Of a stretch of DNA of 64,000 nucleotides, positions 48,571-64,000 are shown one piece after another. How positions within the stretch are numbered: the stretch's first letter is position 1; every line of letters starts with the position of its first letter. This DNA is from Flammeovirga sp. SJP92 (lineage in GTDB: Bacteria > Bacteroidota > Bacteroidia > Cytophagales > Flammeovirgaceae): the NCBI RefSeq assembly GCF_001583495.1, contig NZ_LQAQ01000020.1, positions 62,001-126,000 on the forward strand, given 5' to 3'. Position numbers and translations under genes: made by a program. The notes beneath the pieces are model-generated. The model worked only from the letters and a program-made list of their open reading frames with translations, searched no databases and had not been told where the DNA came from.

Positions 48571-50037
48571 TTAGAAAGTAAACTGTGTAGTTATCATAAA
48601 GAAATGTTGATTATGTGCTTTTCCCGTTTGTGTATCCCAGAAGTACTGCCCTGGTGCCCACAGGTTATAAGTGGCACATATTTCCCAGTGTCGGTTGATA
48701 GAAATGATGGTTGATATCTGGAATGAATCTCCTAAGTCTCTTGAATTAGATTCTCCACTTCTTAGAATACCATTGGAAGTATTGTAAACGGCATCATTTA
48801 AGCTTGAACGCATAAAGTTCCAATACGTCAGACGGGTTTTTACCATTTTGAAAGCCGTAAAATCAACATTGGCTGAAAAGGAGGTTAAGTTCTTTCTATC
48901 CATAGCTCCATGTTCACCAAAAAACTGTGCTACTTGAGGAAATAAAGGATTGAAAGTATTCAGTGTGCCATCTCCTTTATTTTGATCTCCTGACGAATAA
49001 TCAAACCCTAACCATACATGAGGTTGTAAAGCTACTTTTGGAAAACTGACACCAAACTCTGTAGTAATAGAATAGGCACTGATATTTTTATCACCAAATG
49101 TACCAAACTGATACATGGCTTCTACTTCATAATTAAAAACTCGTTGAATCGGCCCTGAAAGTAAGAAACCAACGGTATAACGGTTTTCATCGGCTATGCC
49201 TTCTTCATACACTGCATTTTGACGGTGCAATCCATAGATATAGGGCTCAAAATAAGTTTTACTGAAGGAAGACCAGCTCGGCACACCAAAGCCTGCATGA
49301 GAGTTGTAAGCGACATCATGGCTTTCATACCTCAAACCCCAAAATGTTGTATTCTCATCCCTAGTCGTATACCCATCCGGAACAGGAATCACAGGTTTTG
49401 ATACAAAGCCGATAAACTTATTGTTTTCATTACCGAGGTAAAAGCCTGCTCCATCAAAAGTACGTCGTGTAATCAACCAATTTCCCGGTGATAACAGTCG
49501 TTCATGTCCTGCTTGCAACTCTCTTCTACCTGCCCAAACGCCTAATTCTGTTCTTTTATAAAGATTGAATTTATACTCTGCAAAAAGATTTAGAAATGCT
49601 CCTTTAGTAACAGGTGTTCCTGCCCCAAGTCTTTCCGAATTGTCTTTTGTGGTGTTAGAATAGATTCCTTCTGCGAAAATCCTGAAATTATCTCCAAAGT
49701 GGATATCAGCATGAGATCGTAACCGTAATGTAAATAAACCGGAGTTTTGTGGTAAGAACTCCTCATTCACTGTGGGCATATAACGCACACGCACCTGACC
49801 TCCAAAAGAAGCCCAAATTTTCTTATCTCTGGACAATGGCACATTCTTAATCTTATCCGACCAATCTTGTGCCCTTGCATCACGGTCTGACCACTCTTCT
49901 AACTTCCATACTTCTTTGTACCTTCTATCAGCATAAGAGGGAACTGGAAAAACAGTCTCAAGTTCCTGCCCTATTGCAGCTACTTCTATCAACAGAAGCA
50001 TCAACAACCAACTTGAATACTTCAGTAATCTCGACAT
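48571..50037 (-). CDS. alginate-export-family outer-membrane barrel protein
   Basis: The 488-aa protein has a signal peptide (1-23) and a large barrel with the Alginate_exp-type signature: GQVRVRYMPTVNEEF, LRLRSHADIHFGDNFRIF, LGVWAGRRELQAGHERLLSP, and a late LGFDYSSGDQNKGDGTLNTFNPLFP split at its centre. The protein ends in FTF. Family members are outer-membrane channels, only some of which move alginate; no alginate synthesis genes are here. It starts 3 bp after the NAD kinase stop, so the two genes are translationally linked. Confidence 0.82.
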   Translation of the reverse strand: MSRLLKYSSWLLMLLLIEVAAIGQELETVFPVPSYADRRYKEVWKLEEWSDRDARAQDWSDKIKNVPLSRDKKIWASFGGQVRVRYMPTVNEEFLPQNSGLFTLRLRSHADIHFGDNFRIFAEGIYSNTTKDNSERLGAGTPVTKGAFLNLFAEYKFNLYKRTELGVWAGRRELQAGHERLLSPGNWLITRRTFDGAGFYLGNENNKFIGFVSKPVIPVPDGYTTRDENTTFWGLRYESHDVAYNSHAGFGVPSWSSFSKTYFEPYIYGLHRQNAVYEEGIADENRYTVGFLLSGPIQRVFNYEVEAMYQFGTFGDKNISAYSITTEFGVSFPKVALQPHVWLGFDYSSGDQNKGDGTLNTFNPLFPQVAQFFGEHGAMDRKNLTSFSANVDFTAFKMVKTRLTYWNFMRSSLNDAVYNTSNGILRSGESNSRDLGDSFQISTIISINRHWEICATYNLWAPGQYFWDTQTGKAHNQHFFMITTQFTF

Positions 50038-50040: not shown

Positions 50041-50811
50041 CTAAACGTTAAACTGTTCAATCAAAATACGCTCTTCCAAAGATTGATCTTGATCAAATAA
50101 TAAATGTCTCATATCGTTTTTGTCCTGCCATACTTTGGCATGTACAGCATTCTTCACTTCCTTAGAATCCGCTGCCGCACCAATTGGTCTTTTTACAGGA
50201 TCTAAATTTGTAATCTCAATGCTTACATCATCTGGGAGCAATGCTCCTTTCCATCTTCTTGGTCTAAAAGGACTGACAGGGGTCAAAGCCAATAGATTAG
50301 AATTTAATGGAATAATAGGTCCATGCGCTGAAAAGTTATAAGCCGTACTCCCTGCCGGTGTAGAGACTAAAACACCATCAGCATGCAAAGCTTCCAGCAT
50401 TGTTTTCCCATTGACTGCTATTTTCAAATTGGCACTTTGACCCGAATAACGTATCACAGAAACTTCATTGTAGGCTTTGTAATGATAATGTTCTCCTTGA
50501 TCGTCTTCAATATCAACAGAAATCGGACATAAGTGAATGTCTTTAGAGTGGTTAATACGCTCTAAAAGATCTACGTCCTCTTTGTATTCATTCAGAAGGA
50601 AACCCAAAGTACCTCTATTCATCCCAAAAATAGGGATGTCTAAATGCGGATAAGTATGCAGTACTTGCAACAAAAAACCATCTCCCCCTAATGCTACAAT
50701 TACATCAGCATCTTCAGGTGCGTGGTTTTCATATTTTGAAAGTAATAGTTGATAAGCCTCTTCTGATTTAGGGCTACCTGATTTTAAAAATGCCAATTTC
50801 TGATATTTCAT
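50041..50811 (-). CDS. nadK: NAD kinase
   Basis: It phosphorylates NAD+ to NADP+ in the cytoplasm. The 256-aa protein has the catalytic VALGGDGFLLQ (D44), GMNRGTLGFL, the NE-type motif AYNEVSVIR, and DGVLVSTPAGSTAYNFSAHGP split at VSTPAGSTAYN, all standard for NAD kinase. It is slightly shorter than the usual 280-300 aa, with a reduced N-terminus. It is followed 3 bp later by the outer-membrane barrel gene, which is an unusual partner, and preceded by a small gene 51 bp upstream. Confidence 0.92.
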   Translation of the reverse strand: MKYQKLAFLKSGSPKSEEAYQLLLSKYENHAPEDADVIVALGGDGFLLQVLHTYPHLDIPIFGMNRGTLGFLLNEYKEDVDLLERINHSKDIHLCPISVDIEDDQGEHYHYKAYNEVSVIRYSGQSANLKIAVNGKTMLEALHADGVLVSTPAGSTAYNFSAHGPIIPLNSNLLALTPVSPFRPRRWKGALLPDDVSIEITNLDPVKRPIGAAADSKEVKNAVHAKVWQDKNDMRHLLFDQDQSLEERILIEQFNV

Positions 50812-51152: not shown

Positions 51153-52799
51153 TTAAGCAGTCACTTCGTCTGTTACTTCTTCTTCTTGGTTTCCTAATTT
51201 CATTCCCGGTAAGAAAAAACTTAAGAGTAATGAAATGACAGTGAAAATACTGACAATCCAGAAGGTATGTCTAAATGCGTTTTCTGCGGAGTTATTCACA
51301 ATTTGCTGATACGCTTCTTTCGTTTTCTCTGATAATTGTTCGTTTACCCACACCTTTTCTTGTTCAGGCGTGATTTCCATAAACGTATCTTCCAATTCGA
51401 TAATGATATCCTCTTTATCCTCTTTTGTTATTTGTAGTTCTTCTATTTTTTCATAATTGTCTACCATATTCGAATACACGGCTCCAAAAAGGATAGAACC
51501 TGCAAAAGCAATGGCAAAACCCTGCCCTACAATCTCCTTCATTGTTTCAGACAGCCCTGAAGCTTCCCCATCTTGCTCTGAGGGAACTTTGATCATGGTT
51601 AAAGTAGCAATTTGAGCCATCACCAATCCGCAACCTGTACCAAATACCAATGAACCTGTCATGGTTGTAAATGGTGTCATATCTACAGAAATTTGCTGTG
51701 TAATCAGATAAGTTCCTACTAGTACAATTACAAAACCAACGATGGTAATTAGTTTTGGAGAAATTTTGCTTCCTAAGTTAGCGGTAAAGAATGCCGCTGC
51801 CGCAACGCTGATAGAGATCGGTAATGTAGTCAAAGCGGTATCAAAGGAATCTAATCCTGCTGCAGACTGTACAAAGACTGATACTGTAAATAATACGGCC
51901 GCGATCAAGAAGTAAAGTAATGCTTGGATTGTCATCCCAATCGTAAATGGAATGTTTTTCAAAATAGAAGCACTCAATAATGGTGTTTCTCCTTTAGCTG
52001 TCAATGACGCTCCTCTCTTGAAGAAAATAACCAATAATACCACAGCAATCAAATACATCACAGGAACAATCGACAATCCTCCTAATGGGATCACTGAAGC
52101 TCCAATTTCAAATGGTCTTTTCTCCATTAACCATCCATATTGTGATGCCATAGTTGTGGCAATCAAAAATGTTCCGAAGGCAATTACAGACAAGAACACT
52201 GAAGGAATATCAATTTTGATAGATGGATCTTTTTCTGTTTCTGGCAATGTAAACGCTGCAATAATCGTCAATACACCAAATGCCGGAGATAACCCTAATG
52301 CAATTCTCCATGAAACAATTGAGGCTAAATAACCAACGACTACAGGTGCTACAGCCGATACAATCGATAATACCGCTCCATAAATACCAAAGGCCATTGC
52401 ACGTTGTGATCCTTCATAAAAATACATGATAATGGCAATGGAAGTCGGTATAATCAATACCATTCCGAAAGGCCAAATCAACGCCCAAGCTATACTGAAA
52501 ATCGTAGAGTTTGGTGCTAATACTACAATCGTCAGACCAACTGTATAAATTATAGATCCCACTAAAAAGACCTTTTTCTTTCCTATTTTATCTCCTAATC
52601 TTCCGGCGGTCACCATCAATGTTCCTGCTATCAAAGAAGCAGAAACAATCACCATCTGCAATCCCGAAACGGACCAATTCAATTCCTGCACAATCGGTCC
52701 TATCAATACGTTAATACTAAAAGATGTAATGTACATCATCACCATCGAGAGGATGATTACGATTAACGGTTTCCAATTCATTTTTTCTTGCGTACTCAT
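51153..52799 (-). CDS. MFS transporter, 14-TM DHA2 type
   Basis: The 548-aa inner-membrane protein has about 14 hydrophobic segments. The motif between TM2 and TM3 is GRLGDKIGKKKVFLVG, and motif C-like VGYLASIVSWRIALG follows. A hydrophilic insert of about 55 residues (450-505, rich in E/K) precedes the last segment. DHA2 proteins are usually proton-driven exporters of drugs or metabolites, but some take up small organic acids. It is the last gene of the cluster, starting 13 bp after the metallohydrolase gene, so it probably moves the pathway's substrate or product. Confidence 0.88.
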   Translation of the reverse strand: MSTQEKMNWKPLIVIILSMVMMYITSFSINVLIGPIVQELNWSVSGLQMVIVSASLIAGTLMVTAGRLGDKIGKKKVFLVGSIIYTVGLTIVVLAPNSTIFSIAWALIWPFGMVLIIPTSIAIIMYFYEGSQRAMAFGIYGAVLSIVSAVAPVVVGYLASIVSWRIALGLSPAFGVLTIIAAFTLPETEKDPSIKIDIPSVFLSVIAFGTFLIATTMASQYGWLMEKRPFEIGASVIPLGGLSIVPVMYLIAVVLLVIFFKRGASLTAKGETPLLSASILKNIPFTIGMTIQALLYFLIAAVLFTVSVFVQSAAGLDSFDTALTTLPISISVAAAAFFTANLGSKISPKLITIVGFVIVLVGTYLITQQISVDMTPFTTMTGSLVFGTGCGLVMAQIATLTMIKVPSEQDGEASGLSETMKEIVGQGFAIAFAGSILFGAVYSNMVDNYEKIEELQITKEDKEDIIIELEDTFMEITPEQEKVWVNEQLSEKTKEAYQQIVNNSAENAFRHTFWIVSIFTVISLLLSFFLPGMKLGNQEEEVTDEVTA

Positions 52800-52812
52800 T
52801 TGTTTAGTCTAT

Positions 52813-54930
52813 TTATGGTCTCACAATTTCTTTTTCTCTATTGATGTAATATTCTTTTGTCTGATCAATCCACGTTCTCAGATAAGGACGGAAAGCATCC
52901 AACATTTCTTCTGTTCTGTCTGGACTTTCCCAAGCCTCATTGTCATGTCTTTCATACTTCATTTCCTTTACCTGTTCCAATCTTTTCAAAAGCATATCGA
53001 TGATTTGAGGTGCCTTTTCTTCGGACCAAGTAGGCTGTCCATCTACTTCTATATAAATGGGTGAAGTATGTGCCTGTATTCGTTTGGTAAAATCACTTTG
53101 AAAAACAATGTCATGCGATTTTTCTCCATGTACTTTCACCGCTATCCAACAGCTTTTATCCGCCGGCAATTCCAATTCGATAAACACTTCTTTCTGTCCT
53201 TTTTCTAATTTGATTTCTTTCACCACATCACCATTGACAATGATGCTGGCATATTGCAGCAAATCCCAACTCGGCACGATATAACCTTTTGCTTTGATGG
53301 ATAACGTTTCACCTTTCTTTACTTGAAGCGTGGAACCTATATCTTGACCATTGACATTGAAGTCGATCATCGGCCCATTAGAAACAAATGATTTTCCATC
53401 TTTCAATGCCTTGTTCCATGCGTCTGGTGTGAATTCTCCATCTACTTTCACAAAGGTTCTCACCGCTCCTGGCAACGACATATAAGGCCAATCAGAACCT
53501 GCCGCTGCACTTAATTTGAAACCCAAATTCAAAAAGGCGTACCAGTCATTTAAGTTCAGAGAGTGATATTGGAAGATCTCTACAAAGTCCACTTCGTTTT
53601 CTGGAGCCAGCATTGCTAAAGCAATATTCTGTTGGAATTGAGCAAAATCCATATGAGCCACTCCAAAAACGCCACCTTGTTTATGTACTTCTTTTGATAC
53701 TTTATCATAATGGAAATACTCATTCGGATAGCGAACAAACTCATCATGTCCCATCGCTAAAACATGTCCTAGAAAATCGGTTCTTGGATCTTCCTGTCCT
53801 GATGCGATAAAATAATCTTTCTCTTTGTACTGTCCCTCTTTGCCCCATGCATATTGATCAAAGTGGGTGGTGACTGAGTTTCCTAAAGCATACAACCAAT
53901 GCATGTGTAAATCAGCCGCTCTTGCATGTGCTATCTGATTCGGATTCGCTGTAGCATTTCTTCTTGAGAAGTGATTGTGGACATCTCCTGAATACCAGCC
54001 TTTTTTAGGCATATCTAATACATGTTCTATTTGTATTTCTATAGGATTATTTTTTCCTGCTTTGATTTCTATTTCCTTTTGGAGAATAGGATACTCCGGT
54101 CCTTTCATTACAATCAAAGTGTACTTTCCTGCCGGAATGTTGGCTTGATAAAAACCATCAATGTACATCGTATAATGATTATCACTTGGCCAATACACTT
54201 GATCCAATTCTTCTCTGATCTCAACAGATCTTACTTTTGTTTCAAAGAACTGTAGCTCAATAGCACTTTCTGTTGGAAGTGGCATTCTGCCTGTAACATC
54301 ATACAACCCAATCTGTGCCGCTACTCTTTCTTTCGATTTCTTTTCAAATAGGCTTAACTGTAAATTTCCATTAGCATTTCTTTTGGCTGTTTCTCCTATT
54401 AATTCAAATTTGATATCACGAATAAAAAGGAGCTTATTCGACATATCCAACCCTGCCGAAAGAGCAAAATCTGTTTTACTATAACCCCTGTTGGCAAAAC
54501 GGGCTCTTTCTAATACAAACTCATATTTCTGAAACCCTTTAGTACCTTCTGCAATTTCTACTCTATGTACTGATTCCACCACACCGTTTCTATCATAAGC
54601 ATAGAAAAACTCTGTCAGATTACTAGCATCCAACTCCACTGTCACCTTTACTTTCTGATCAATATCAAAAGCAAACTGATCATCTACACTAAACCCCAAA
54701 GCAATGCCATAAAGGATTTTTTCTCCGCCAACTTCTTTTACTCCTGCTCTTGAAGGATCATTATCTACCCTCAATCCCATGGTTTGAAAAACACCTGTAG
54801 CAATGGTTCTATCAATCTGATATGTATGCCAATCCAGCTCAAAAGTTCCTGAAGCATTATCAGGCTGATGGGCGGTTAGCATCAATGGTAAAGTAAAAAG
54901 CAAGCAAAAACTTAGTAGTAATTTTTTCAT
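52813..54930 (-). CDS. secreted CehA/McbA-type PHP metallohydrolase
   Basis: The ATG at 54930 was chosen over a TTG six codons upstream because MKKLLLSFCLLFTLPLMLTA is a signal peptide and the purine-rich AGAAGAGA precedes it; length is 705 aa. The N-terminal 290 residues are beta-rich. The PHP-like domain follows with metal ligands in SGDVHNHF (about 315-322), GVAHMDF near 425 and AAGSDWP near 478. This order matches the CehA/McbA family, whose members include carbaryl hydrolase and other esterase or phosphoester hydrolases. The substrate is unknown. It is exported, so it may process the substrate before uptake. It is coupled to the MFS gene (13-bp gap). Confidence 0.85.
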   Translation of the reverse strand: MKKLLLSFCLLFTLPLMLTAHQPDNASGTFELDWHTYQIDRTIATGVFQTMGLRVDNDPSRAGVKEVGGEKILYGIALGFSVDDQFAFDIDQKVKVTVELDASNLTEFFYAYDRNGVVESVHRVEIAEGTKGFQKYEFVLERARFANRGYSKTDFALSAGLDMSNKLLFIRDIKFELIGETAKRNANGNLQLSLFEKKSKERVAAQIGLYDVTGRMPLPTESAIELQFFETKVRSVEIREELDQVYWPSDNHYTMYIDGFYQANIPAGKYTLIVMKGPEYPILQKEIEIKAGKNNPIEIQIEHVLDMPKKGWYSGDVHNHFSRRNATANPNQIAHARAADLHMHWLYALGNSVTTHFDQYAWGKEGQYKEKDYFIASGQEDPRTDFLGHVLAMGHDEFVRYPNEYFHYDKVSKEVHKQGGVFGVAHMDFAQFQQNIALAMLAPENEVDFVEIFQYHSLNLNDWYAFLNLGFKLSAAAGSDWPYMSLPGAVRTFVKVDGEFTPDAWNKALKDGKSFVSNGPMIDFNVNGQDIGSTLQVKKGETLSIKAKGYIVPSWDLLQYASIIVNGDVVKEIKLEKGQKEVFIELELPADKSCWIAVKVHGEKSHDIVFQSDFTKRIQAHTSPIYIEVDGQPTWSEEKAPQIIDMLLKRLEQVKEMKYERHDNEAWESPDRTEEMLDAFRPYLRTWIDQTKEYYINREKEIVRP

Positions 54931-54973
54931 TCTCTTCTTAGTAATCAATATAGAGTTTTGATTGAAGGTGGTT

Positions 54974-55001
54974 CGTGAGCCACAATACCTTGTGGCTCAC
55001 G
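54974..55001 (-). terminator. perfect 12-bp hairpin between decarboxylase and metallohydrolase genes
   Basis: Arms CGTGAGCCACAA (54974-54985) and TTGTGGCTCACG (54990-55001) pair perfectly around the 4-nt loop TACC. With no T-run it may reduce read-through rather than stop it, or stabilise the upstream mRNA. Confidence 0.6.
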
Positions 55002-55033
55002 GATCACAACATGGTCTTTTTAAAACTATGTAA

Positions 55034-56419
55034 TTAAATATCTTTCAAACGCTCAGGAACAACGTGTCTTGAGAATACTTCCTCTTGTGTTTCTGGCCTT
55101 TTCACCCACTCCACACTATCACCTTTTACCATCACCATTCCCGGTCTAGGAAGTGCATTAAAGTTACAAGTGTAAGGCTCAATGTAAGAACCTGTATTTA
55201 AGAACGCCAATGTATCTCCTTTCGCCAATTGAGGCATTTTGTATTGCTCAGCAAGACAATCATAATTACAAGTGATACCCACTACGTCAACAGGAGTGTC
55301 ATATTTCTTGTCCGCTTTATTACAAGCCACCAAATCAAATGGAGGAACAACATTCAAACCACCAATACTCAAGAACGTTTCCGAAGTATCTGTTTCAGCC
55401 CATTGGTAATCCATTCCGTTGGCTGTTTCGTGCTTCATGTTATGTACCTTGAACAAGTGAATACCACTTTCGTTGTACATTGCACGGCCTGGCTCGATTT
55501 CAAGAATTACACCATCTGAAGAAAGACCGATACCCTTCATACCATTTCTGAATGTTTCTGTAATTACTTTCGCGAAATCTTCTAAATGAGGCGTTTCATA
55601 ATCTGTCACCGCCACACGGCTTTCTTTGTCCATTTCGGCAGGGAAACCACCACCAACAGAAACAATAGAAGGCGACCAGTTATTACCTACACCATCATGA
55701 ATTTCTTTGATCATATCTACAACCGACTGTACTAATGACTGCCAGAAAATAGGTTTCTTAGAGTGACGGCCTGCATGTGTGTGAACACCTACTAATTTTA
55801 CATTAGGACAATCCGCAAACTGTGGTAACATTTCTCTCACTTCAGAAGTAGGAATACCATATTTTACAGTTTGTGTCATTTCACGGATCAAACGGGCAGG
55901 GAAGAAATCAGAAGGCTCATCAAGGTCTTTCATATAAGGCTTGATACGCAACATCACATGTGCTTCCTTTCCTAATTCCTTCGCGATTCTTTCACAAACT
56001 CCTAATTCATCCTTATTGTCCAATACAATATGAATTCCTAAATCAATGGCTTTACGGATAATATCATCCGACTTGATAGAACCATTTACAGCAATATCTT
56101 CATAAGGCACACCGCCTCTGATCGCTGTTTCTAATTCACCTGCTCCAAAAGTATCACAACCACAACCTGCCTTTGTCAATACTCTTCTCACCGCTACGGT
56201 AGGATTGGCCTTTACAGCGGCCATTACTCGGATACGTCCTTCAGGGTAAAACTGCTGGAATGTATTTTGGAATGCCAGGTAGTTTTGTACTAAAATATTT
56301 TCTGATACTACAAACAGTGGAGTACCAAACTTCTCTGCGATTTCAACAGTATTTACGTCTTCGATGTATAAATCACCATCTTTAACGCTTAACAACGGAT
56401 TCATTTTGATATCACTCAT
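55034..56419 (-). CDS. fold-type III PLP decarboxylase (LysA/diaminopimelate decarboxylase-like)
   Basis: The 461-aa cytoplasmic enzyme belongs to the alanine-racemase/DAP-decarboxylase fold. It has the PLP lysine K70 in MAAVKANPTV, HTHAGRH (213-219), the phosphate-binding SVGGGFP (254-260) and EPGRAMYN (309-316). In the usual substrate-binding motif CESxD the protein reads C384-N-Y-D387. NTGSYIEPYTCNFNALPRPG (about 408-427) replaces the typical DAGAY...FN. These changes argue that its substrate is not diaminopimelate. Possible reactions are decarboxylation of a basic or guanidino amino acid, or a carboxylated polyamine. It shares the strand with SDR and amidinohydrolase genes. Confidence 0.82.
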   Translation of the reverse strand: MSDIKMNPLLSVKDGDLYIEDVNTVEIAEKFGTPLFVVSENILVQNYLAFQNTFQQFYPEGRIRVMAAVKANPTVAVRRVLTKAGCGCDTFGAGELETAIRGGVPYEDIAVNGSIKSDDIIRKAIDLGIHIVLDNKDELGVCERIAKELGKEAHVMLRIKPYMKDLDEPSDFFPARLIREMTQTVKYGIPTSEVREMLPQFADCPNVKLVGVHTHAGRHSKKPIFWQSLVQSVVDMIKEIHDGVGNNWSPSIVSVGGGFPAEMDKESRVAVTDYETPHLEDFAKVITETFRNGMKGIGLSSDGVILEIEPGRAMYNESGIHLFKVHNMKHETANGMDYQWAETDTSETFLSIGGLNVVPPFDLVACNKADKKYDTPVDVVGITCNYDCLAEQYKMPQLAKGDTLAFLNTGSYIEPYTCNFNALPRPGMVMVKGDSVEWVKRPETQEEVFSRHVVPERLKDI

Positions 56420-56452
56420 GTTCTTTATTTTTTATAGTTTTTCAATGTCTTA

Positions 56453-57196
56453 TTAAAGGAATACTACAAGGGCCAAGCGGGCGGTATGATTATCATCTTT
56501 GAAGATTCCTCTGTAGAATCCACTCAACTGTAACTTGTCTGATAATGCATATTGAGCAATAAACTCTTGTATATATCTGTCATTTCGTTCCATTCCAAGG
56601 TTACTTGCGGTATAAATGGGAGTGACTTGTAAAAACATTTTTTCACTCAAAATAATTGGTGCAATCACCTGAAATGAGATACCATGCTGAGGATCTTGGA
56701 AAAGGCCAGGTCTTTCAATCACTGGACTTGAAGTGTACTGATAAGAGAGAATCGGAAACGCCTGAATCCAATCTGCAATCATCAACCCCACTGTAACACC
56801 GGGCTGTACCAACCAAGCTCCCGTTCCTAAGCCATGGTCATAATTTCCTGTTGGAGCAAAAATGTCTACTGATGGTCCGAATGCTCCAAGGAACTTATCG
56901 TAGTTTTTATAGGGCAAGTAAAAGTACCTTGCTCTAAAGTCTCCAATACCTGTTTTGTCTGTACCTGTATTGTATAACAATGGAAGCTCTGCTAAAATTA
57001 AATGTGCTTCACTTGGTGCAAACATAAACTCCGCTCTATACCCATAAGTATCAGGTCCATTTTTCGAATAGTTATATTCTAAATGATTGTACAGTTGAGT
57101 ATAAAAGTTGGTTGGTTTAGAGGCATCTATTTCTTCTTGTGCGAAAATGAAAGTTGTTGAAAAAAGAAGTGATAAACAGATGAATATTTGTTTCAT
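56453..57196 (-). CDS. outer-membrane barrel protein, phenol MetA-pathway transporter-like
   Basis: I start at the ATG at 57196 because MKQIFICLSLLFSTTFIFAQ is a signal peptide; the longer frame would overlap the previous gene. The 247-aa protein is a predicted beta-barrel ending in LALVVFL. A central GPSVDIFAPTGNYDHGLG block (about 120-138) is typical of Phenol_MetA_deg-like outer-membrane proteins found in aromatic and other catabolic clusters. It probably admits the cluster's substrate through the outer membrane. It is 11 bp downstream of the small membrane protein gene. Confidence 0.72.
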   Translation of the reverse strand: MKQIFICLSLLFSTTFIFAQEEIDASKPTNFYTQLYNHLEYNYSKNGPDTYGYRAEFMFAPSEAHLILAELPLLYNTGTDKTGIGDFRARYFYLPYKNYDKFLGAFGPSVDIFAPTGNYDHGLGTGAWLVQPGVTVGLMIADWIQAFPILSYQYTSSPVIERPGLFQDPQHGISFQVIAPIILSEKMFLQVTPIYTASNLGMERNDRYIQEFIAQYALSDKLQLSGFYRGIFKDDNHTARLALVVFL

Positions 57197-57206
57197 TGTA
57201 AAAAAA

Positions 57207-57851
57207 TTAAAATCCAGCTTTAATACTGATTCTTGTAAGTATATAATTGGCAATTGGCACTAAGGCGATCATACCTATAAGCCATGCAGTGAAAGAAATG
57301 TAAGACAAACCTACACAGATAAAAGCGACTACTGGATCTGCTAAAATTTCATTAGACAAGACCTTCACTCTTTCGTTGGTTAATTCATCTTTCAACATTC
57401 CATTATGTTTTGCGTGATGCAGTTTCCAAAAAGAAAACATTCCTAAAAGGCCCCACACCATACTGAAAATGGCTCTTGAATGCGGTTGATCTGAAGTGAA
57501 TTCTATATTCATCTCGAAGTAAGGATACAAACACAACAAGAAGAAAAATCCAAAAGTGATCAGTATCTGATTAAAATCGATATTCTTCATAGAGTGATGT
57601 ACTTCCACAAACTTAAACCAGTGAATAACCAGAATGACAAACCCTGCCACATAAGGCAGAAAAGGTTTATCCCAAATCAATTGTGAATCTATTACCTTAT
57701 CTCCCTCTACAATTTCTGTTTCTACATCAAAGACCACCAAACCTAAAATGGGAGTGGTCATACTGATGGCAAACAATAGCATTCCTAAATGCTTTAGATA
57801 GTCCAGAAAGTAGGAGTAATCTCTTAATCTCTTTGTTTGTCTTGATCTCAT
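57207..57851 (-). CDS. small integral membrane protein, TMEM175-like
   Basis: The 214-aa protein has about five to six hydrophobic segments and a basic N-terminus (MRSRQTKRLRDY). The stretch IHWFKFVEVHHSMKNIDFNQ then ILITFGFFFLLCLYPYF recalls the W..HH..F..I and N..LL..V.PF pattern of TMEM175/DUF1211 potassium channels, but the first-helix FSDG motif is absent, so the match is weak. It starts 1 bp after the deaminase stop and is clearly part of the cluster. Function unknown. Confidence 0.6.
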   Translation of the reverse strand: MRSRQTKRLRDYSYFLDYLKHLGMLLFAISMTTPILGLVVFDVETEIVEGDKVIDSQLIWDKPFLPYVAGFVILVIHWFKFVEVHHSMKNIDFNQILITFGFFFLLCLYPYFEMNIEFTSDQPHSRAIFSMVWGLLGMFSFWKLHHAKHNGMLKDELTNERVKVLSNEILADPVVAFICVGLSYISFTAWLIGMIALVPIANYILTRISIKAGF

Positions 57852-57852
57852 A

Positions 57853-58461
57853 TTAGTACCTATCTAACCACTCATCCACACAATGATCAATGGAATTTAA
57901 CCACACCTGACGAGCTATTTCTTTGAGTTTCGGAGAACAATCCGCCTCTTCCACCACTAGCCTTGATCCTAAGATTTGAAAGCCTTCAGGCAACCTTTCG
58001 TAGTTCGTTTGAGCACCCGCTTCTATACTGTGAGCATCTCTGTATACATAATAGGTTTTGCCTACTTGGCTGAAACAGATTCTGGCCAAACACATCGGAC
58101 AAGGTTCTTGAGAGGTGAATAAGGTATAGTCTCTCATTCTTGGTGTTTTATCGTCACAAAGTCTATCTTCCAACTCATTTAATAGCACCATTTCAGCGTG
58201 TAAATCCAATCGGTGATAAGGTGAGTTTGCTTTCGACATATTCTCTGCAATTACTTCATCATGATGTAAAAGACAACCACCTACGGCCACACTCCCTGCT
58301 CTTCCTGCTCTGATTCCTTGTCGGATGGAAATGATAGAAGGTCCATCGTGTTTATATCCTTCAGGATTCGCTTCATAATCGGCTAATTGTTGCTCTAACT
58401 CCTCATAATTGTAAGAAGGAGTATCAAATTTTAGTATCGGTTTTTCATTTGTATTACACAT
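57853..58461 (-). CDS. zinc-dependent cytidine/guanine-type deaminase
   Basis: The 202-aa cytoplasmic protein has the deaminase zinc signature: H88-A-E90 in LDLHAEMVLL and P120-C121-P-M-C124 in SQEPCPMCLARI. This places it with guanine, cytosine, tRNA-adenosine and dCMP deaminases. A 50-residue N-terminal helix rich in E/Y and a Cys/Trp-containing tail are additional. VGGCLLHHDEVIAENMS follows the usual core strand pattern. The substrate is not obvious; an amino-heterocycle or amidine-like group fits a cluster that also has an amidinohydrolase. It is 17 bp downstream of an SDR gene. Confidence 0.85.
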   Translation of the reverse strand: MCNTNEKPILKFDTPSYNYEELEQQLADYEANPEGYKHDGPSIISIRQGIRAGRAGSVAVGGCLLHHDEVIAENMSKANSPYHRLDLHAEMVLLNELEDRLCDDKTPRMRDYTLFTSQEPCPMCLARICFSQVGKTYYVYRDAHSIEAGAQTNYERLPEGFQILGSRLVVEEADCSPKLKEIARQVWLNSIDHCVDEWLDRY

Positions 58462-58478
58462 AATAGTAATATTTTAAT

Positions 58479-59228
58479 TTACCAACCTATTCTTTTCCTA
58501 TCGGTGAAAAAACCTGCAGTGGGTCCCTCTTTGTCAAGTGTTGCTAACCAAACGGATGTATCAGCACCTTCTCTCAAGGTTTTTGGTCTAGCTTCATCAC
58601 CGTAATCGGGAAGATCTTCTGTATTCATTGCACTGTCTACCCAACCCGGACAACAACTGTTGACTTTTATTCCAAAAGATTCTAATTCCTTAGCATACAA
58701 AACAGTCATTGCGTTTACACCCACTTTAGAGCTTTGGTAAGCGGCACAGATATCTTCTCTCAATGGTGAATTCATATCTGAAAGTTGGGCTAATTGGGCT
58801 ACTTGAGTAGAAAGGTTGACAATTCTCCCTGCTTCACTTTTCTTTAGTAATGGCACTAATTTCTGAGTTAATAAAAAAGGTCCAATGTAATTTACTTCCA
58901 TTACTTTTCTGAAAAGTGTTTCTGATAAATCAGAAGGGTGTTTTCCCATATCTACCAGCATTGCCGCATTATTGATCAAAGCATCTAAGTGACCAAAATT
59001 TTCAGTAATGAAATCAACTAAAAGCTGAAAGGTAGATGAATCAGATAAATCAAATTCCAATGAATAAGCGTCCATTCCTAGCTCCTTAAGTTCATCTGCT
59101 TTCTCTACCACATTGGGTTGTACATCTGCCAAAATCACACTGTAATTCTGCTCTCCCAATAATTTTGCGGTTTCAAAACCAATGCCTTGAGCGGCGCCCG
59201 TAATTAATGCAACTTTTTTCATCTTCAT
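58479..59228 (-). CDS. SDR oxidoreductase (carbonyl reductase-like)
   Basis: The 249-aa NAD(P)-dependent enzyme has TGAAQGIG (about 10-17), NNAAM near 87 (NNAG variant), a catalytic Ser in NLSTQVAQ (about 138), and Y-x3-K in YQSSK (about 164-168). The insert AQLSDMNSPLREDICAA before the active-site Tyr, and CCPGWVDSAMN after it, match the carbonyl-reductase-1-like subgroup. It has lost the usual G in NNAG. It is the fifth gene of the cluster; its role is an oxidation or reduction of an unknown alcohol or ketone. Confidence 0.88.
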   Translation of the reverse strand: MKMKKVALITGAAQGIGFETAKLLGEQNYSVILADVQPNVVEKADELKELGMDAYSLEFDLSDSSTFQLLVDFITENFGHLDALINNAAMLVDMGKHPSDLSETLFRKVMEVNYIGPFLLTQKLVPLLKKSEAGRIVNLSTQVAQLAQLSDMNSPLREDICAAYQSSKVGVNAMTVLYAKELESFGIKVNSCCPGWVDSAMNTEDLPDYGDEARPKTLREGADTSVWLATLDKEGPTAGFFTDRKRIGW

Positions 59229-59363
59229 TACTTTATTTGAGGGAAGAAGGAAGAGGGTAAATAGTCTATATTATGACCCAAGATCCATCATAAAAACTAC
59301 GCTATAAACCATAACACGGACCATTCCTCCTCACTCTTAATTCTCACCTCTTACCTTAATTTC

Positions 59364-60164
59364 TTACAAGCCAGGAGCCATGCCACCGTGTACCGGAAGT
59401 ACAACACCTGTAATGTAACTTGCTGCAGGAGAAGCTAAGTAAACAATCGCTTCTGCAATTTCACTTGGCTCAGCCGGTCTACCTAATGGAATACCAGCGT
59501 TCTCTTTAGCTGCCGCTTCTTCCACTGTACAACCTTCCGCTTCTGCAATCGCTTTGTACGCTTCTTGCAACATATCCGTATTGATTGCACCTGGAGCAAC
59601 AACATTAGCACGAATACCTTTCGATGCTTGCTCAATCGCCAATACTTTAGTTGCTCCAACCAATGCGTGCTTAGTAGCAACATAAGGGTAAGGCATACCC
59701 ATACCTGCTGCAATACCCGCTGTAGAAGCCACATTAACGATAGCTCCACCTCCTGATTTTTCCATAGCAGGAATAGCACCTTTACATACTGCCAATGCAC
59801 CTTTTACGTTTACAGCGTAGTTTGCGTCCCAGTCTTTATCAGTGTTTTCATCCAATAAAGCAGAACCAAATCCTACACCTGCATTGTTTACCACGATATC
59901 CAATGTACCGTAAGCATCTAATACTTGTTGAATAGCAGCATCTACTTGAGCTGAATCTGATACGTCAACCAAAACACCCATTGCTTCACCTCCATTTGCT
60001 TTGATAGCAGCAACATTAGCTTCCATACCTTCTTTAGAACTATTACGTCCTGTCAGTACTACTTTAGCTCCTAGTTCAGCCAATTTATCCGCAATGGCTT
60101 TACCTAAACCTTTTGTTTTTGTTGCTCCTGTAACTAGTGCTACTTTGTTTTCTAGAAGATTCAT
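59364..60164 (-). CDS. SDR oxidoreductase (beta-ketoacyl-reductase/glucose-dehydrogenase type)
   Basis: The 266-aa enzyme has TGATKTKGLGKA (about 14-25, a two-residue-longer glycine loop than usual), NNAG near 93-96, Ser in NVASTAGIAAG (about 147), and Y-x3-K in YVATK (about 160-164). The C-terminus GRPAEPSEIAEAIVYLASPAA and GVVLPVHGGMAPGL are typical of the FabG-like group. It follows the Ldh-family gene with a hairpin between. It probably oxidises an alcohol group of the cluster's substrate. Confidence 0.9.
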   Translation of the reverse strand: MNLLENKVALVTGATKTKGLGKAIADKLAELGAKVVLTGRNSSKEGMEANVAAIKANGGEAMGVLVDVSDSAQVDAAIQQVLDAYGTLDIVVNNAGVGFGSALLDENTDKDWDANYAVNVKGALAVCKGAIPAMEKSGGGAIVNVASTAGIAAGMGMPYPYVATKHALVGATKVLAIEQASKGIRANVVAPGAINTDMLQEAYKAIAEAEGCTVEEAAAKENAGIPLGRPAEPSEIAEAIVYLASPAASYITGVVLPVHGGMAPGL

Positions 60165-60200
60165 TTTCTATATTTTTATCCGAAGAAACAGTCTGATAGT

Positions 60201-60223
60201 GGGGCGTTACGATGCAACGCCCC
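60201..60223 (-). terminator. hairpin between Ldh-family and SDR genes
   Basis: The perfect 8-bp GC-rich stem GGGGCGTT (60201-60208) and AACGCCCC (60216-60223) has a 7-nt loop. It has no T-run. It is one of several intercistronic hairpins in this cluster and could set relative expression. Confidence 0.5.
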
Positions 60224-60263
60224 TATAACAATACAAGAATAGTTTCAACGGTTATTATCTAAA

Positions 60264-61409
60264 TTATTTATTGTTTTGAGCTTCCCACTCAGCTCTTAAG
60301 CTCTCTTCAGAAAGACCGTATCTTCCTGCTTGAGTTTGGAAGAATGGCTCCCAGTGCGAATCTAATACTTCAACGATTTCCTCGTTTTTAATAATTGACT
60401 CATAGCCTCTTGCACCTGGCATACCTGGCTTTCTTTGGCCAGGACGAGCTGGTGAATCTTCGATAGCTTGAGCAAAACGATCTGATTTCGCCAATACGTC
60501 ACCCAATGGACCAAATACTGAAGGATCGATACAGATAAAGTAAGAACCACCTACTGAAGTACCGTCTGCTTTTTTGTCCACAATATCACCTAGTGATGGA
60601 ACCTCTGGAGTGATGATACCACCTGGGTTGATAATACCTGAAAGTAATTCGTTGAATAAGTTCAACATGTAAACTCTAGGGTTAGATAATTGTTGGAAAG
60701 CCGATTGGTTGTACACACGACCGTATCCTTCGATTGGCTGAGCATAAGGAGCCAAGTCATTTGATAATTCACCTGTTTCAGGGTCAATTACATAATCACC
60801 TTTCAGCTTCGTACCTTGAAGAACCGCTTGTGCAGTATCTGCATCATACCACTCACAAAGTTTTGTTGACATCCATACTGGAGGCTTCTCACCTGCTGGG
60901 CCAATACCATCAAATGGAGGTACTGAAATGGTGTTTGACATACCACCTAGAGGCGAACACATCGGTACAGAGTTGTTAGAAGTTAAAGCCACACAACCTG
61001 CTTTTGATGCCATCCAAGTGTAAGCTCCAAATGAACCTGCATCATTATGATTGTGACCGAATACGATAGCAATACCATGCTTTTTCGCTTTCTCAATGGC
61101 CATATTCGCCATTTTTGTCAATGTCCAGTATCCAGAAGAACGCTTACCATCAATTGATGCCCAAGTATCGCCTTCGCCTACTACTTCTGGCTCTGCATTG
61201 ATATCCAATAAACCTGATTGGTGCATGATATCAATTGCTTCGTACACACCTAAACCTTGGTTTAATTTTCCTTGGCGGATACCTAACATTAATGCGTCTG
61301 CAACTGCATCACCATGTTCTTCTGATGCACCTGCTGTCATCCAAGTTCTTTTTAAAGCATAGCGTAAGAAGTCTGCATTTGTCGATTTTGTTTTTCCTTG
61401 TGCTCCCAT
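60264..61409 (-). CDS. malate/L-lactate/ureidoglycolate dehydrogenase family protein
   Basis: The 381-aa protein belongs to the Ldh2 family of NAD(P)-dependent enzymes that oxidise 2-hydroxy acids or reduce cyclic imines (malate, ureidoglycolate, 2,3-diketogulonate, delta-1-pyrroline-2-carboxylate). Family landmarks are ADALMLGIRQGKLNQGLGVY (about 38-57), the catalytic His region GHNHNDAGSFGAYTWMA, LTSNNSVPM, and late GGSYFICIDPSVFG. The motif is HNHND, not the usual SNHFG, which suggests a changed substrate. It is flanked by SDR genes on both sides, so two successive oxidations of one carbon skeleton are possible. Confidence 0.88.
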   Translation of the reverse strand: MGAQGKTKSTNADFLRYALKRTWMTAGASEEHGDAVADALMLGIRQGKLNQGLGVYEAIDIMHQSGLLDINAEPEVVGEGDTWASIDGKRSSGYWTLTKMANMAIEKAKKHGIAIVFGHNHNDAGSFGAYTWMASKAGCVALTSNNSVPMCSPLGGMSNTISVPPFDGIGPAGEKPPVWMSTKLCEWYDADTAQAVLQGTKLKGDYVIDPETGELSNDLAPYAQPIEGYGRVYNQSAFQQLSNPRVYMLNLFNELLSGIINPGGIITPEVPSLGDIVDKKADGTSVGGSYFICIDPSVFGPLGDVLAKSDRFAQAIEDSPARPGQRKPGMPGARGYESIIKNEEIVEVLDSHWEPFFQTQAGRYGLSEESLRAEWEAQNNK

Positions 61410-61485
61410 CGTAGTGTTTTGTTTTTGATATTTTGATGTGGGTACAACCGTAGTTGCACCCTTTATATATGTATTTTAAGATCGC

Positions 61486-62256
61486 TTATTCAGCGGCTAA
61501 TGTGTTGTAAGCGTCAATGCTCATACCTGCAGTAAATCCACCGTCAACACCTATTACCTGACCATTGACAAAGTCACAGTCTTTAGCGGCTAAAAAGTGG
61601 ATTAGTGAAGCTACTTCTTCCGGTTCAGCAATTCTTCCTAATGGTACAGCTTTGTGTTCCATTCTTAACTGAGGCTGTCCTTCTGGAGTGTTAGCCATAG
61701 GCGTATTTACAGAAGTAGGTGCAATTACATTGGCTCTGATACCTCTGCTCCCCAACTCTACTGCTGCTGTTTTTGTGATACCTACAACTGCCCATTTAGA
61801 AGCTACGTAAGGGGCTAGATAAGCCACACCTTGTACCGCAGCCGCTGAAGCTACATTGACAATTCTACCGCCGTCATTCATCTGAGGCACTCCGAATTTG
61901 ATACCATGCACCACACCTTTTGTGTTGATCGCAAAGTTTTTATCGAAGTTTTCAATGTCCGTTTCCATCATTGTGTCATAACCGAAGTTGGCTCCGGCAT
62001 TGTTGACAAGAATATCAATCTTACCGTATACTTCTACTGTTTTATTGACCATTGCCTCAACAGATTCAGCACTTGAAACATCACATTGAACGAAAGTAGC
62101 TCCGATTTTTTCAGCGATTTCAGTACCGTCTTTACGACCTGAAATTACTACCTTGGCACCTGCTTCAATAAAGCGTTCAGCCGTTTTCAAGCCAATACCA
62201 GAAGTACCGCCAGTCACAATCGCAACTTGGCCTTCTAATGAAAAGAAATTTGCCAT
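61486..62256 (-). CDS. SDR oxidoreductase
   Basis: The 256-aa NAD(P)-dependent enzyme has TGGTSGIG (about 15-22), NNAG near 87-90, a Ser in NVASAAAVQG (about 134), and Y-x3-K in YVASK (about 149-153). NVIAPTSVNTPMANT and GQVIGVDGGFTAGMS are standard for classical SDRs. It is the second gene of the cluster, 41 bp after the ureohydrolase gene. A small imperfect hairpin (about 61439-61462) lies downstream of its stop. Confidence 0.9.
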   Translation of the reverse strand: MANFFSLEGQVAIVTGGTSGIGLKTAERFIEAGAKVVISGRKDGTEIAEKIGATFVQCDVSSAESVEAMVNKTVEVYGKIDILVNNAGANFGYDTMMETDIENFDKNFAINTKGVVHGIKFGVPQMNDGGRIVNVASAAAVQGVAYLAPYVASKWAVVGITKTAAVELGSRGIRANVIAPTSVNTPMANTPEGQPQLRMEHKAVPLGRIAEPEEVASLIHFLAAKDCDFVNGQVIGVDGGFTAGMSIDAYNTLAAE

Positions 62257-62297
62257 GATATATTTATGGATTAATAATTTAGATCAAACAGAAAAGA

Positions 62298-63461
62298 TTA
62301 TAGCGTTACGTTACCAAACGCTTGTGGCCAGTTCGTAGGGTGGTTTTTACCTCCGTTTCTACGCTTCACATCTGCCGCTAACCAGCAAAGGATTTTCCAG
62401 CTTAAGCCTGCGGCAATGTAGCCGAATGTTTTGGCAGGGTCATTTTGTGGAGCATACTCTACTACGTCTGCACCCACCAAGTTTACTTTACCTGACATAC
62501 GTACTAATTTCAATACATCATGCACCCAGTTGGCATCTAAACCAAATGGCTCTACAGCTGATGAAGCTGAGTTGTAAACTGGATCAAGACAGTCTAAGTC
62601 TAATGAGATATACGTTGGTCCATCACCTACTACTTCAATGATTTTATCAGCCATTTCTCTTGGCGACATCACTCTTGCTTCATCAGCAAAGTAAACGTTC
62701 GTACCGAAATTTTTCGCATGACCACCCACAAGACCAGTCATTCTACCACGAATACCAATCTGAATCATTCTTTCAGGATCTACATTACCTTTTGCAAAGT
62801 TTTGTGTAAACATGTTTCCTGAGTGGTAAGGATAAGGGAAATCTGCCTCTGTTACCAAATCATAGTGAGCATCAAAGTGAATAACAGAAAGAGGTCCGTA
62901 AGTTTCACCTAACGTCAATAAAGGAGCTACTGTAACAGTATGATCACCACCCCACATAAATGGTACGATATGATTATCACAAACAATTTTTCTGTAATGT
63001 TCGATGGCATGTTCCATTTCACCAGCCAAATCAAATTGACCGTATGTATCAATTGTACCGTAATCGATGATATTGGCAAAATCGAAAGGAATGTCAAACT
63101 CACCATTGATCCAAGGTTCAGTCGTACCCATAAAGTTTTTAGAAAGCTCTCTTAATGCTTTAGGACCGTACTTATGAGAAGAGTTCATTGGTGCCGACTT
63201 TTCAAAAGGCATACCAATCACAGCAATGTCAGCGTCTTCTAGATCTCTGGAGAATGGAGCCATAAAAGCACCCAAATAATCTTTATTGATATTACTCAAG
63301 AATTCAATTCCTTGACCGCCACCCATTGTTTTCACTCTATCTAAATGGGCTTTCACATCAGGATGCACCCCATCTCTACTTGTAGAGTTTTTCCAAAGGT
63401 CTTGGTACTTTTCTAATCTTTCTTGAGGAATCGGTGGATACTTTTTGATTTCCTTTTTCAT
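62298..63461 (-). CDS. ureohydrolase (arginase/agmatinase family)
   Basis: It probably hydrolyses a guanidino or formamidine-type group with a dinuclear metal site. All six metal ligands of the family are present: H174 in WGGDHTV, D197, H199 and D201 in FDAHYDL, D288 and D290 in SLDLDCLDP. H213 in HSGNMF matches the conserved active-site His. At 387 aa it is 70-90 residues longer than typical agmatinase, with an N-terminal extension (1-75) before IAVIGMPF. The length resembles that recalled for the nickel-dependent guanidine hydrolase of cyanobacteria; guanidinobutyrase and proclavaminate amidinohydrolase are other options. It is the first gene of the cluster, and urea would feed the urease encoded in the same window. 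Confidence 0.88.
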   Translation of the reverse strand: MKKEIKKYPPIPQERLEKYQDLWKNSTSRDGVHPDVKAHLDRVKTMGGGQGIEFLSNINKDYLGAFMAPFSRDLEDADIAVIGMPFEKSAPMNSSHKYGPKALRELSKNFMGTTEPWINGEFDIPFDFANIIDYGTIDTYGQFDLAGEMEHAIEHYRKIVCDNHIVPFMWGGDHTVTVAPLLTLGETYGPLSVIHFDAHYDLVTEADFPYPYHSGNMFTQNFAKGNVDPERMIQIGIRGRMTGLVGGHAKNFGTNVYFADEARVMSPREMADKIIEVVGDGPTYISLDLDCLDPVYNSASSAVEPFGLDANWVHDVLKLVRMSGKVNLVGADVVEYAPQNDPAKTFGYIAAGLSWKILCWLAADVKRRNGGKNHPTNWPQAFGNVTL

Positions 63462-63913
63462 AGTAATCTTAAATTTATCTTAGTAATAATTTTATTATAA
63501 AGTAGTGTAGGTTTTGTAGCTAAACCTTAAAACTATTCAATCGTTCGAATAATAATTCAGTAGTTAAAAAACAGAAGCCGTTCTGGCATCTGCACCTAAC
63601 TTAACGGTACTATGGAGAATAAAGTTTCGGAATTAGGTGTAACAATTTTGTGAATAACATTGAAGTGAATAGTTATTGGGTTTCTTTAATCATCATTTAA
63701 GAGAAGTATTCATTCTCTTTTGGTTATACAATACTAAAAACTAAAATCCAGTATCTCAAAATAAAAAAAACATTTCGAACAATAAACAATCAAACTACTG
63801 AATAACAGAACATTGCAATTAGTTATACATAAAAAAAAGTGTATAATTTTCGTGATATATCACTAAAAGAAACATGATTCATTGATTTTTATTTACAATT
63901 ATTCTTCACTGTA
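63462..63913. promoter_or_regulatory. 452-bp region upstream of the ureohydrolase cluster
   Basis: No gene is seen. A perfect 11-bp inverted repeat, ATTCAGTAGTT (63555-63565) and AACTACTGAAT (63793-63803), brackets about 230 bp, and TTCGAA occurs beside each arm (63544-63549 and 63774-63779). The minus strand near 63490 reads CTTTATAATA, a possible -10 element. I looked for a sigma-54 -24/-12 promoter and found no convincing one. Confidence 0.55.
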
Positions 63914-64000
63914 CTAAACATACTTCTTGATTTTATTTTCCTTTCGAATAGATAATTTCTTCATTTTAGATCTTAATGTTGCCTCATTAATTCCCAAAAC
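63914..64000 (-). CDS. C-terminal end of a Fis-type HTH regulator (5' part outside window)
   Basis: The last 28 codons on the minus strand, ending at the TAG at 63914-63916, read VLGINEATLRSKMKKLSIRKE and then NKIKKYV. The LGINxxTLRxKxKKLxI pattern is the recognition helix of Fis-type helix-turn-helix domains, which end NtrC-type sigma-54 activators and some other regulators. It sits upstream of the ureohydrolase cluster in the same direction and may control it. The main domains cannot be seen from here. Confidence 0.7.
   Translation of the reverse strand, partial: VLGINEATLRSKMKKLSIRKENKIKKYV

What the first reader, a model, noticed from the sequence alone, without database searches (positions are those of the whole stretch)
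51153..63461. Uncharacterised 11-gene pathway cluster: ureohydrolase, three SDRs, Ldh-family enzyme, deaminase, PLP decarboxylase, PHP hydrolase and transporters
Eleven minus-strand genes mostly spaced 1-140 bp apart combine enzyme classes I do not recall together: an amidinohydrolase with full metal ligands, four NAD(P)-dependent oxidoreductases, a CDA-type deaminase, a fold-III PLP decarboxylase with a changed substrate motif, a secreted CehA/McbA hydrolase, an outer-membrane barrel and a DHA2 carrier. This fits complete use (or production) of a hydroxylated guanidino or amidine compound, releasing urea. The compound is unknown; the pathway reading is inference.
Basis: partly seen in the sequence, partly recalled or inferred. 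Interest (0 to 1): 0.8.

Follow-up and report, generated by a model that had tools for sequence, protein, structure and literature searches.

The report
Marine guanidino-compound operon, substrate unknown
A block of about twelve genes under its own control switch, shared by distantly related marine bacteria, probably breaks down a guanidine-bearing amino compound and releases urea, but which compound is still unknown.

Summary
In detail: eleven same-strand genes at 51153-63461 with the enzyme classes named. The unit is larger. A NAD kinase gene (50041-50811) follows the carrier, a Fis-type regulator gene lies just upstream (mostly beyond the window), and a palindromic operator sits at 63848-63867. 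In 8 genomes searched, all 7 exact operator matches lie upstream of this cluster.

The decarboxylase gene is in 9 of 9 Flammeovirga genomes and 0 of 9 other Flammeovirgaceae; the block is also in two Flavobacteriaceae-sample genomes and one other Cytophagales genome, with identities that suggest lateral exchange.

Two comparisons sharpen the chemistry. A Halioglobus plasmid pairs a 49%-identical decarboxylase, fused to an SDR, with a deiminase-like protein and a carbamoylase-family protein, an alternative way to dismantle a guanidino group. Lutimonas carries a GABA-degradation-like gene set beside the block. Both favour catabolism of an arginine-like guanidino compound through decarboxylation and urea release. 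The 'Ldh' enzyme lacks the family's usual His in 9 of 9 copies read, so ordinary hydroxyacid oxidation is doubtful.

Substrate, reaction order and direction (use or production) are not shown. Verdict: a real, uncharacterised pathway operon; the mechanism is mostly inferred.

The parts
62298..63461 (-). A: ureohydrolase-superfamily enzyme (387 aa), first gene
   Evidence: PF00491 183 bits; below every NCBIfam cut-off for a named enzyme; GGDH, DAHYD and DLDCLD motifs visible
61486..62256 (-). B: SDR oxidoreductase
   Evidence: conserved next to A in all 13 loci read
60264..61409 (-). C: Ldh_2-family protein without the usual His (HGxxR reads QGLGV)
   Evidence: PF02615 145 bits; alignment; 8 of 8 further copies the same
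59364..60164 (-). D: SDR oxidoreductase; a relative is fused to the decarboxylase in Halioglobus
58479..59228 (-). E: SDR oxidoreductase, present in 9 of 12 loci
57853..58461 (-). F: cytidine-deaminase-fold hydrolase, present in 11 of 12 loci
   Evidence: PF00383 35.9 bits over 25; HAE and PCPMC motifs
57207..57851 (-). G: TMEM175-like membrane protein
   Evidence: PF06736 29.4 bits over 25
56453..57196 (-). H: putative outer-membrane barrel; listed ORF starts at 57253 (TTG), likely start at internal Met (inferred)
   Evidence: homology starts at residue 11-19 in most relatives; no family match
55034..56419 (-). I: fold-III PLP decarboxylase with altered substrate motifs
   Evidence: PF02784 101.9 bits
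52813..54948 (-). J: CehA/McbA-type hydrolase with a signal-peptide-like start; only in the Flammeovirga loci
   Evidence: NF038032 200.7 bits over 80
51153..52799 (-). K: MFS carrier nearest to the EmrB/DHA2 group
50041..50811 (-).
   Evidence: NF003406 337.7 bits over 211; next to K; coordinates fit for the others; 341 bp gap here
48571..50037 (-). M: Alginate_exp-type outer-membrane channel, 3 bp after L; probable Flammeovirga addition
   Evidence: PF13372 202 bits; follows L in the window and 5 of 5 other Flammeovirga stretches that reach it
63848..63867 (.). Operator palindrome GTGATATATCAC with flanks
63914..64000 (-). 3' end of the regulator gene (683 aa, Sigma54_activat + Fis-type HTH); the rest lies beyond the window (L004 3915-5966)

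Best explanation
One regulated, laterally exchanged operon for NADP-linked breakdown of an arginine-like guanidino amino compound from the marine environment. A Fis-family regulator binds the palindrome upstream of the first gene and switches on about twelve genes (operator position shown, binding inferred). SDRs B, D and E, and perhaps C, change oxygen or imine functions on the substrate. PLP enzyme I removes the amino-acid carboxyl group, CDA-type enzyme F hydrolyses an amino or amidine group where it is present, and ureohydrolase A cuts the guanidino group to urea plus a primary amine. In Lutimonas the amine would pass through an aminotransferase and aldehyde dehydrogenases towards succinate. 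NAD kinase L would supply NADP. G, H and K, and M in Flammeovirga, handle transport; J adds an outside hydrolytic step in Flammeovirga. Shown: genes, families, conserved order, operator. Inferred: every reaction, their order, and the direction.
For: Conserved order in 12 loci from two classes of Bacteroidota. 7 of 7 exact operator sites in 8 genomes lie upstream of this cluster. Halioglobus: decarboxylase-SDR fusion beside a DDAH/ADI-family and a carbamoylase-family protein. Lutimonas and G692: M20, aldehyde dehydrogenase, GABA-transaminase-like, SSADH and class III aminotransferase genes beside the block. A Microvirga plasmid has a 31% decarboxylase relative 2.7 kb from an agmatinase-like gene.
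Against: No enzyme passes a specific family cut-off, so no substrate is named. Carrier K is nearest to efflux carriers. The M20 enzyme was not found in 3 Flammeovirga genomes and Alg240, and the aminotransferase has only about 30% relatives there, so the end of the route is not seen in Flammeovirga. F and E are missing in one otherwise complete Flammeovirga locus, L085, so they cannot be essential to every version. The operator was not found in the L029 stretch with the GABA-type genes. Urease alpha is in only 1 of 8 genomes.
Confidence: 0.42

Rival explanations
1. Biosynthesis and export: the operon makes a small amine or guanidine-derived metabolite and exports it through K and the outer-membrane barrel, with NAD kinase supplying NADPH for reductive SDR steps.
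For: K is nearest to EmrB/DHA2 efflux carriers; a NAD kinase inside the operon; present in 9 of 9 Flammeovirga genomes; no importer gene in the core.
Against: TonB receptor, M20 and GABA-type genes beside the block in Lutimonas and G692, and M20, TonB receptor and deiminase-like genes beside the Halioglobus relative. A urea-releasing step is more usual in breakdown, although proclavaminate amidinohydrolase is biosynthetic.
Confidence: 0.25
2. Ordinary arginine-agmatine-putrescine route: I is an arginine decarboxylase, A an agmatinase, and the SDRs, C and F are passengers or a separate pathway.
For: Agmatinase models give the best scores for A (179.9 and 121.6 bits); I belongs to the Orn/DAP/Arg decarboxylase fold; Microvirga pairs relatives of both.
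Against: Both agmatinase scores are below their cut-offs (302 and 174.3); I scores 24.6 bits against SpeA and 219.2 against LysA, both below cut-off; B, C and D are conserved as strongly as A and I; a D-like SDR is fused to the decarboxylase in Halioglobus.
Confidence: 0.15
3. Amidine rather than guanidine chemistry: A hydrolyses a formimino-type or cyclic amidine compound and releases formamide or ammonia, with F acting on a ring amidine.
For: Formimidoylglutamase and metformin hydrolase share A's superfamily and match it weakly; CDA-fold enzymes act on cyclic amidines (family knowledge); Halioglobus has three related proteins nearby, one matching DMFA2_C.
Against: A scores higher against agmatinase (121.6) than HutG (84) models; the Halioglobus proteins are of guanidino- and ureido-hydrolysing families.
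Confidence: 0.12

Closest known systems
Arginine decarboxylase / agmatinase / putrescine / GABA route
   Same: Fold-III PLP decarboxylase plus ureohydrolase; GABA-type enzymes adjacent in Lutimonas and G692
   Different: A and I pass no agmatinase or SpeA cut-off; SDRs, a His-less Ldh_2 protein, a CDA-type enzyme, a NAD kinase and a dedicated regulator are added
Diaminopimelate decarboxylase (LysA)
   Same: Best-scoring named model of I (219.2 bits) and closest solved relative (1twi)
   Different: Below the 297.9 cut-off; GSQ reads GRH(SKK) in 5 of 5 aligned sequences; CESSD reads CNYD in 4 and CNAE in Halioglobus
Proclavaminate amidinohydrolase / guanidinobutyrase / guanidinopropionase
   Same: Among the best solved matches of A (122.9, 107.8 and 112.1 bits)
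   Different: No specific relation; agmatinase 4dz4 scores higher (130.6 bits)
Halioglobus pacificus pRR3-57 locus (CP019045.1, unannotated)
   Same: Relatives of I, B and D, with MFS, TonB receptor, CoA ligase and cation-efflux genes resembling those of Lutimonas or Alg240
   Different: No relative of A, C, F, G, H, J, K or L at E up to 1e-4 in the stretch; DDAH/ADI-family and M20 proteins instead

Membership tests
Ureohydrolase superfamily (A) | Arginase-family profile and metal-ligand motifs | tested here: met
   PF00491 183.2 bits over 22; GGDH, DAHYD, DLDCLD aligned to solved members; ligand roles recalled
Agmatinase (A) | Passes a curated agmatinase cut-off | tested here: not met
   179.9 against 302 and 121.6 against 174.3
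Ureohydrolase superfamily (A) | Releases urea from a guanidino substrate | not testable with these tools
   needs an assay
Ldh_2 hydroxyacid dehydrogenases (C) | Family profile | tested here: met
   PF02615 145 bits over 38.8
Ldh_2 hydroxyacid dehydrogenases (C) | HGxxR motif (His recalled as catalytic, Arg as carboxylate-binding) | tested here: not met
   QGLGV against 1v9n and 3i0p; same in 8 of 8 other copies
Diaminopimelate decarboxylase (I) | LysA equivalog cut-off | tested here: not met
   219.2 against 297.9
Fold-III PLP decarboxylases (I) | Both decarboxylase domains | tested here: met
   PF02784 101.9 bits and PF00278 28.9 bits, both over cut-off
Cytidine-deaminase-like hydrolases (F) | Zinc motifs HAE and PCxxC with family profile | tested here: met
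   PF00383 35.9 over 25; motifs invariant in 5 of 5
NAD kinase (L) | Curated equivalog | tested here: met
   NF003406 337.7 over 211
Sigma-54 enhancer-binding proteins (regulator) | GAFTGA loop | tested here: not met
   absent in 8 of 8 Flammeovirga regulators read (5, 3; L087 cut off, not judged); present in 4 of 4 others
Single operon | Co-transcription | not testable with these tools
   Order, gaps and one operator argue for it; the 341 bp gap before L leaves L less sure

The most novel reading that the evidence does not exclude
A previously undescribed marine catabolic pathway for a guanidine-bearing natural product, built on a conserved decarboxylase-SDR core with two interchangeable nitrogen-removal modules: ureohydrolase (urea out) in Bacteroidota, deiminase plus carbamoylase in a gammaproteobacterium. 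It uses an Ldh_2-fold protein that lost its usual His and took on other chemistry, and a CDA-type deaminase not seen outside this cluster in the searches made.
Probability: 0.33. Interest if true: 0.7.

Novelty: new variant of a known kind. Interest (0 to 1): 0.5.

Why it matters
Guanidino nitrogen is a poorly mapped part of marine organic nitrogen (general knowledge). A self-contained, transferable operon with its own regulator and one operator locus per genome gives a direct handle: induction or growth tests on a compound panel could name the substrate. It would also define activities for a His-less Ldh_2 protein, an unplaced deaminase and an altered fold-III decarboxylase.

Tried and rejected
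Substrate by nearest enzyme: A and I pass no specific NCBIfam cut-off, C and F none either, so names such as agmatinase or DAP decarboxylase were not adopted.

Substrate by wider neighbours: class sample (A at E up to 1e-60: 1 of 295, the own genome); phylum sample (I at 1e-120: 1 of 395; F at 1e-25: 1 of 395); Lutimonas family sample (I: 2 of 299). Plasmids: A 443 records, all under 60% identity; I 256 records, the best at 48.7%; F none; C 87 records, listed hits 23-27%; E, D and the Lutimonas aminotransferase gave broad, generic lists, two of them capped at 5000 records. Of the three decarboxylase neighbourhoods opened, Halioglobus and, weakly, Microvirga were informative; Antarctobacter was not. 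Three deiminase neighbourhoods showed no relative of this core by their annotation.

Riboswitch upstream of A: no credible Rfam match at E up to 5 in 701 bases. A terminator-like hairpin there folds as well in 2, 19, 12, 5 and 45 of 200 shuffles for the window, F. aprica, F. pacifica, EKP202 and OC4; the consensus scan did not list it and found terminators at chance level (9 against 10.6). Left unexplained.

Operator scan controls: at three mismatches the window gives 2 matches against 4.07 expected, so only the close matches mean anything; the single L026 match has 3 mismatches and lies inside a gene.

Structures of A and F: the AlphaFold models failed (mean pLDDT 34.7 and 39.0), so no fold search was run.

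Mycosporine-like amino acids, gigartinine, saxitoxin-type alkaloids and octopine were considered from memory and set aside: no core enzyme points to them. Literature: (search listings with the starts of abstracts only; no paper was opened) showed no description of this cluster in the open-licence library held.
Full report
What is there. The window is G000:C20:62001-126000. G000 shares its genus with eight genomes, and the closest named ureohydrolases are in Flammeovirga at 97-100% identity, so I take the window to be Flammeovirga. All eleven genes are at the stated places on the minus strand. In transcription order: A ureohydrolase, B SDR, C Ldh_2 family, D SDR, E SDR, F CDA-type deaminase, G TMEM175-like, H putative outer-membrane barrel (no family match), I fold-III PLP decarboxylase, J CehA/McbA-type hydrolase, K MFS carrier. 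Gaps are 1-135 bp; G and H overlap by 47 bp only if H starts at the upstream TTG.

The unit is larger. L (50041-50811) is a NAD kinase passing a curated equivalog (337.7 bits over 211). Each of 7 genomes has L and a second, weak match taken as its housekeeping NAD kinase. L was read next to K in the window, F. pacifica, Lutimonas, G692, Alg240 and four further Flammeovirga stretches; in F. aprica, EKP202 and OC4 only its coordinates were seen, and they fit. The gap before L is about 10 bp in Lutimonas, G692 and Alg240 but 341 bp in the window. In Flammeovirga an Alginate_exp-type channel gene, M, follows L in 6 of 6 stretches that reach it.

Distribution. The decarboxylase is in 9 of 18 Flammeovirgaceae genomes, all 9 of the window's genus and 0 of 9 others; in 1 of 395 of the phylum sample, the own genome; and in 2 of 299 of the Lutimonas family sample, Lutimonas itself and G692. 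A scan of genome contigs with A gave 7 loci: four Flammeovirga, Lutimonas saemankumensis, Cytophagales Alg240-R148, and a MAG contig that ends inside C. A, B, C, D, G, H, I and K are in 12 of 12; F in 11; E in 9; J in 9, exactly the Flammeovirga ones. L085 (G657) lacks both E and F. E, F, G and H change order between lineages.

Lateral exchange. A, B, C, D, F and I of the window are 80-91% identical to those of Lutimonas, Alg240 and the MAG, while E, G, H, K and L are 51-73%. Housekeeping NAD kinases are 44% (Lutimonas) and 51% (Alg240) identical to the window's, and 41% between those two. Yet A of Lutimonas and Alg240 is 96% identical, and A of two Flammeovirga genomes, G655 and G657, is only 71% identical to the window's A although their C, D and I are 92-96% identical. 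A has therefore probably been exchanged separately. One housekeeping gene is a thin baseline, and strong constraint may add to the high values.

Control. A regulator with a Sigma54_activat-type domain and a Fis-type HTH lies directly upstream of A (window, Lutimonas; others by homology). A palindrome, GTGAWATWTCACGAAA, lies upstream of A. In 8 genomes with one mismatch allowed, all 7 exact sites, in 6 genomes, are upstream of A; in the other two (G656, G299) the cluster site has one mismatch. I checked the fetched loci directly: each of these sites lies between the regulator and A. Eight one-mismatch sites elsewhere carry neither gene and do not exceed the 23 control sites of the reversed pattern. 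G655, G657, G660 and G692 had not been used to write the pattern, although G692 is nearly the same as Lutimonas here. The regulator lacks the GAFTGA loop in 8 of 8 Flammeovirga copies read and keeps it in 4 of 4 others, while the C-terminal HTH is nearly invariant. Outside Flammeovirga a -24/-12-like promoter stands at -362 to -369; Lutimonas and G692 score 12.5 of 14.5 (reached in 3 of 300 shuffles of the G692 sequence), the MAG 11.5 and Alg240 11 (11 or more in 36 of 300). A Flammeovirga sequence (OC4) also reaches 11 at another position, so the weaker two rest on position. Sigma-54 is present in 12 of 12 genomes. Flammeovirga seems to have kept the operator and re-wired the activation step.

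Chemistry. A is outside every curated equivalog; its best solved matches are agmatinase, proclavaminate amidinohydrolase, guanidinopropionase and guanidinobutyrase. I is a fold-III decarboxylase in which GSQ reads GRHSKK in 5 of 5 aligned sequences and CESSD reads CNYD in 4 of 5, CNAE in Halioglobus. In C the family's HGxxR motif reads QGLGV; I recall the His as catalytic and the Arg as carboxylate-binding, so ordinary hydroxyacid oxidation is doubtful. F keeps the zinc motifs.

Two comparisons point to guanidino catabolism. First, the Halioglobus pacificus plasmid (unannotated; ORFs) encodes a 49%-identical decarboxylase fused to a D-like SDR, a second SDR, an M20 protein over the hydantoinase/carbamoylase cut-off, and a DDAH/arginine-deiminase-family protein (Pfam over cut-off, every NCBIfam enzyme model below), with MFS, TonB receptor, CoA ligase and cation-efflux genes. 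No relative of A, C, F, G, H, J, K or L was found there at E up to 1e-4. Deiminase plus carbamoylase is a known alternative to a ureohydrolase for removing a guanidino carbon (family knowledge); that it replaces A here is inference. Second, Lutimonas and G692 carry beside the block an M20 protein 52-53% identical to that of Halioglobus, an aldehyde dehydrogenase (no specific cut-off passed), a GABA-transaminase-like protein (364.5 against a cut-off of 506.65), an SSADH (681.5 over 646.35), a class III aminotransferase (652.8 over 618), a CoA ligase and a TonB receptor (families scanned on the Lutimonas copies, the receptor on G692). The M20 gene was not found in three Flammeovirga genomes or Alg240, and the aminotransferase has only about 30% relatives there, so these are extensions, not the core.

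Reading. The most likely account is catabolism of an arginine-like guanidino amino compound, with decarboxylation by I and urea release by A; the SDRs, C and F prepare the substrate or process intermediates. Production and export is the main rival, because K resembles efflux carriers. Order and substrate are not shown, and 'hydroxylated' remains a guess.

Novelty. The families are known; this combination, its regulator-operator unit and its spread were not found in the literature listings searched (nothing opened). I rate it a new variant of a known kind with moderate interest.

Noticed in passing
window 24036-35430: Complete-looking urease block (UreD, UreG-type, UreF, UreC, fused UreA-UreB) followed by what reads as a urea-type ABC transporter (UrtA-E by my reading; binding protein, permease and ATPase domains), about 34 kb from the urea-releasing A. 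Urease alpha was found in 1 of 8 genomes tested, this one; four other Flammeovirga genomes were not tested.
   Followed up: partly
L004 3915-5966 and Flammeovirga orthologs: Regulator lost the GAFTGA loop of sigma-54 activators while its DNA-binding end and operator stayed conserved: apparent re-wiring of one regulatory unit.
   Followed up: yes
L084 2618-3778, L085 15807-16967: In two Flammeovirga genomes A is only 71% identical to the window's A while the neighbouring C, D and I are 92-96%: A seems to have been replaced by a divergent allele.
   Followed up: partly
window 63560-63615: Terminator-like hairpin between operator and A, present in varying form in five Flammeovirga leaders; weak statistics.
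   Followed up: partly
L008 9667-9978, L007 5569-5904, L010 9643-9963: Small protein between regulator and A outside Flammeovirga; a sub-threshold ABM match for the Lutimonas copy (18 bits against 23.1). Role unknown.
   Followed up: no
L048 2231-10897 against L029/L008: TonB receptor, CoA ligase, M20 and GABA-type genes are 96-100% identical between Lutimonas and G692, several neighbours 78-93%: perhaps recent exchange of that segment.
   Followed up: no
L026 4344-6200, 6268-7884, 22709-24325: Three related proteins, the first matching DMFA2_C (dimethylformamidase-like, 230 bits), surround the Halioglobus decarboxylase; role unknown.
   Followed up: no
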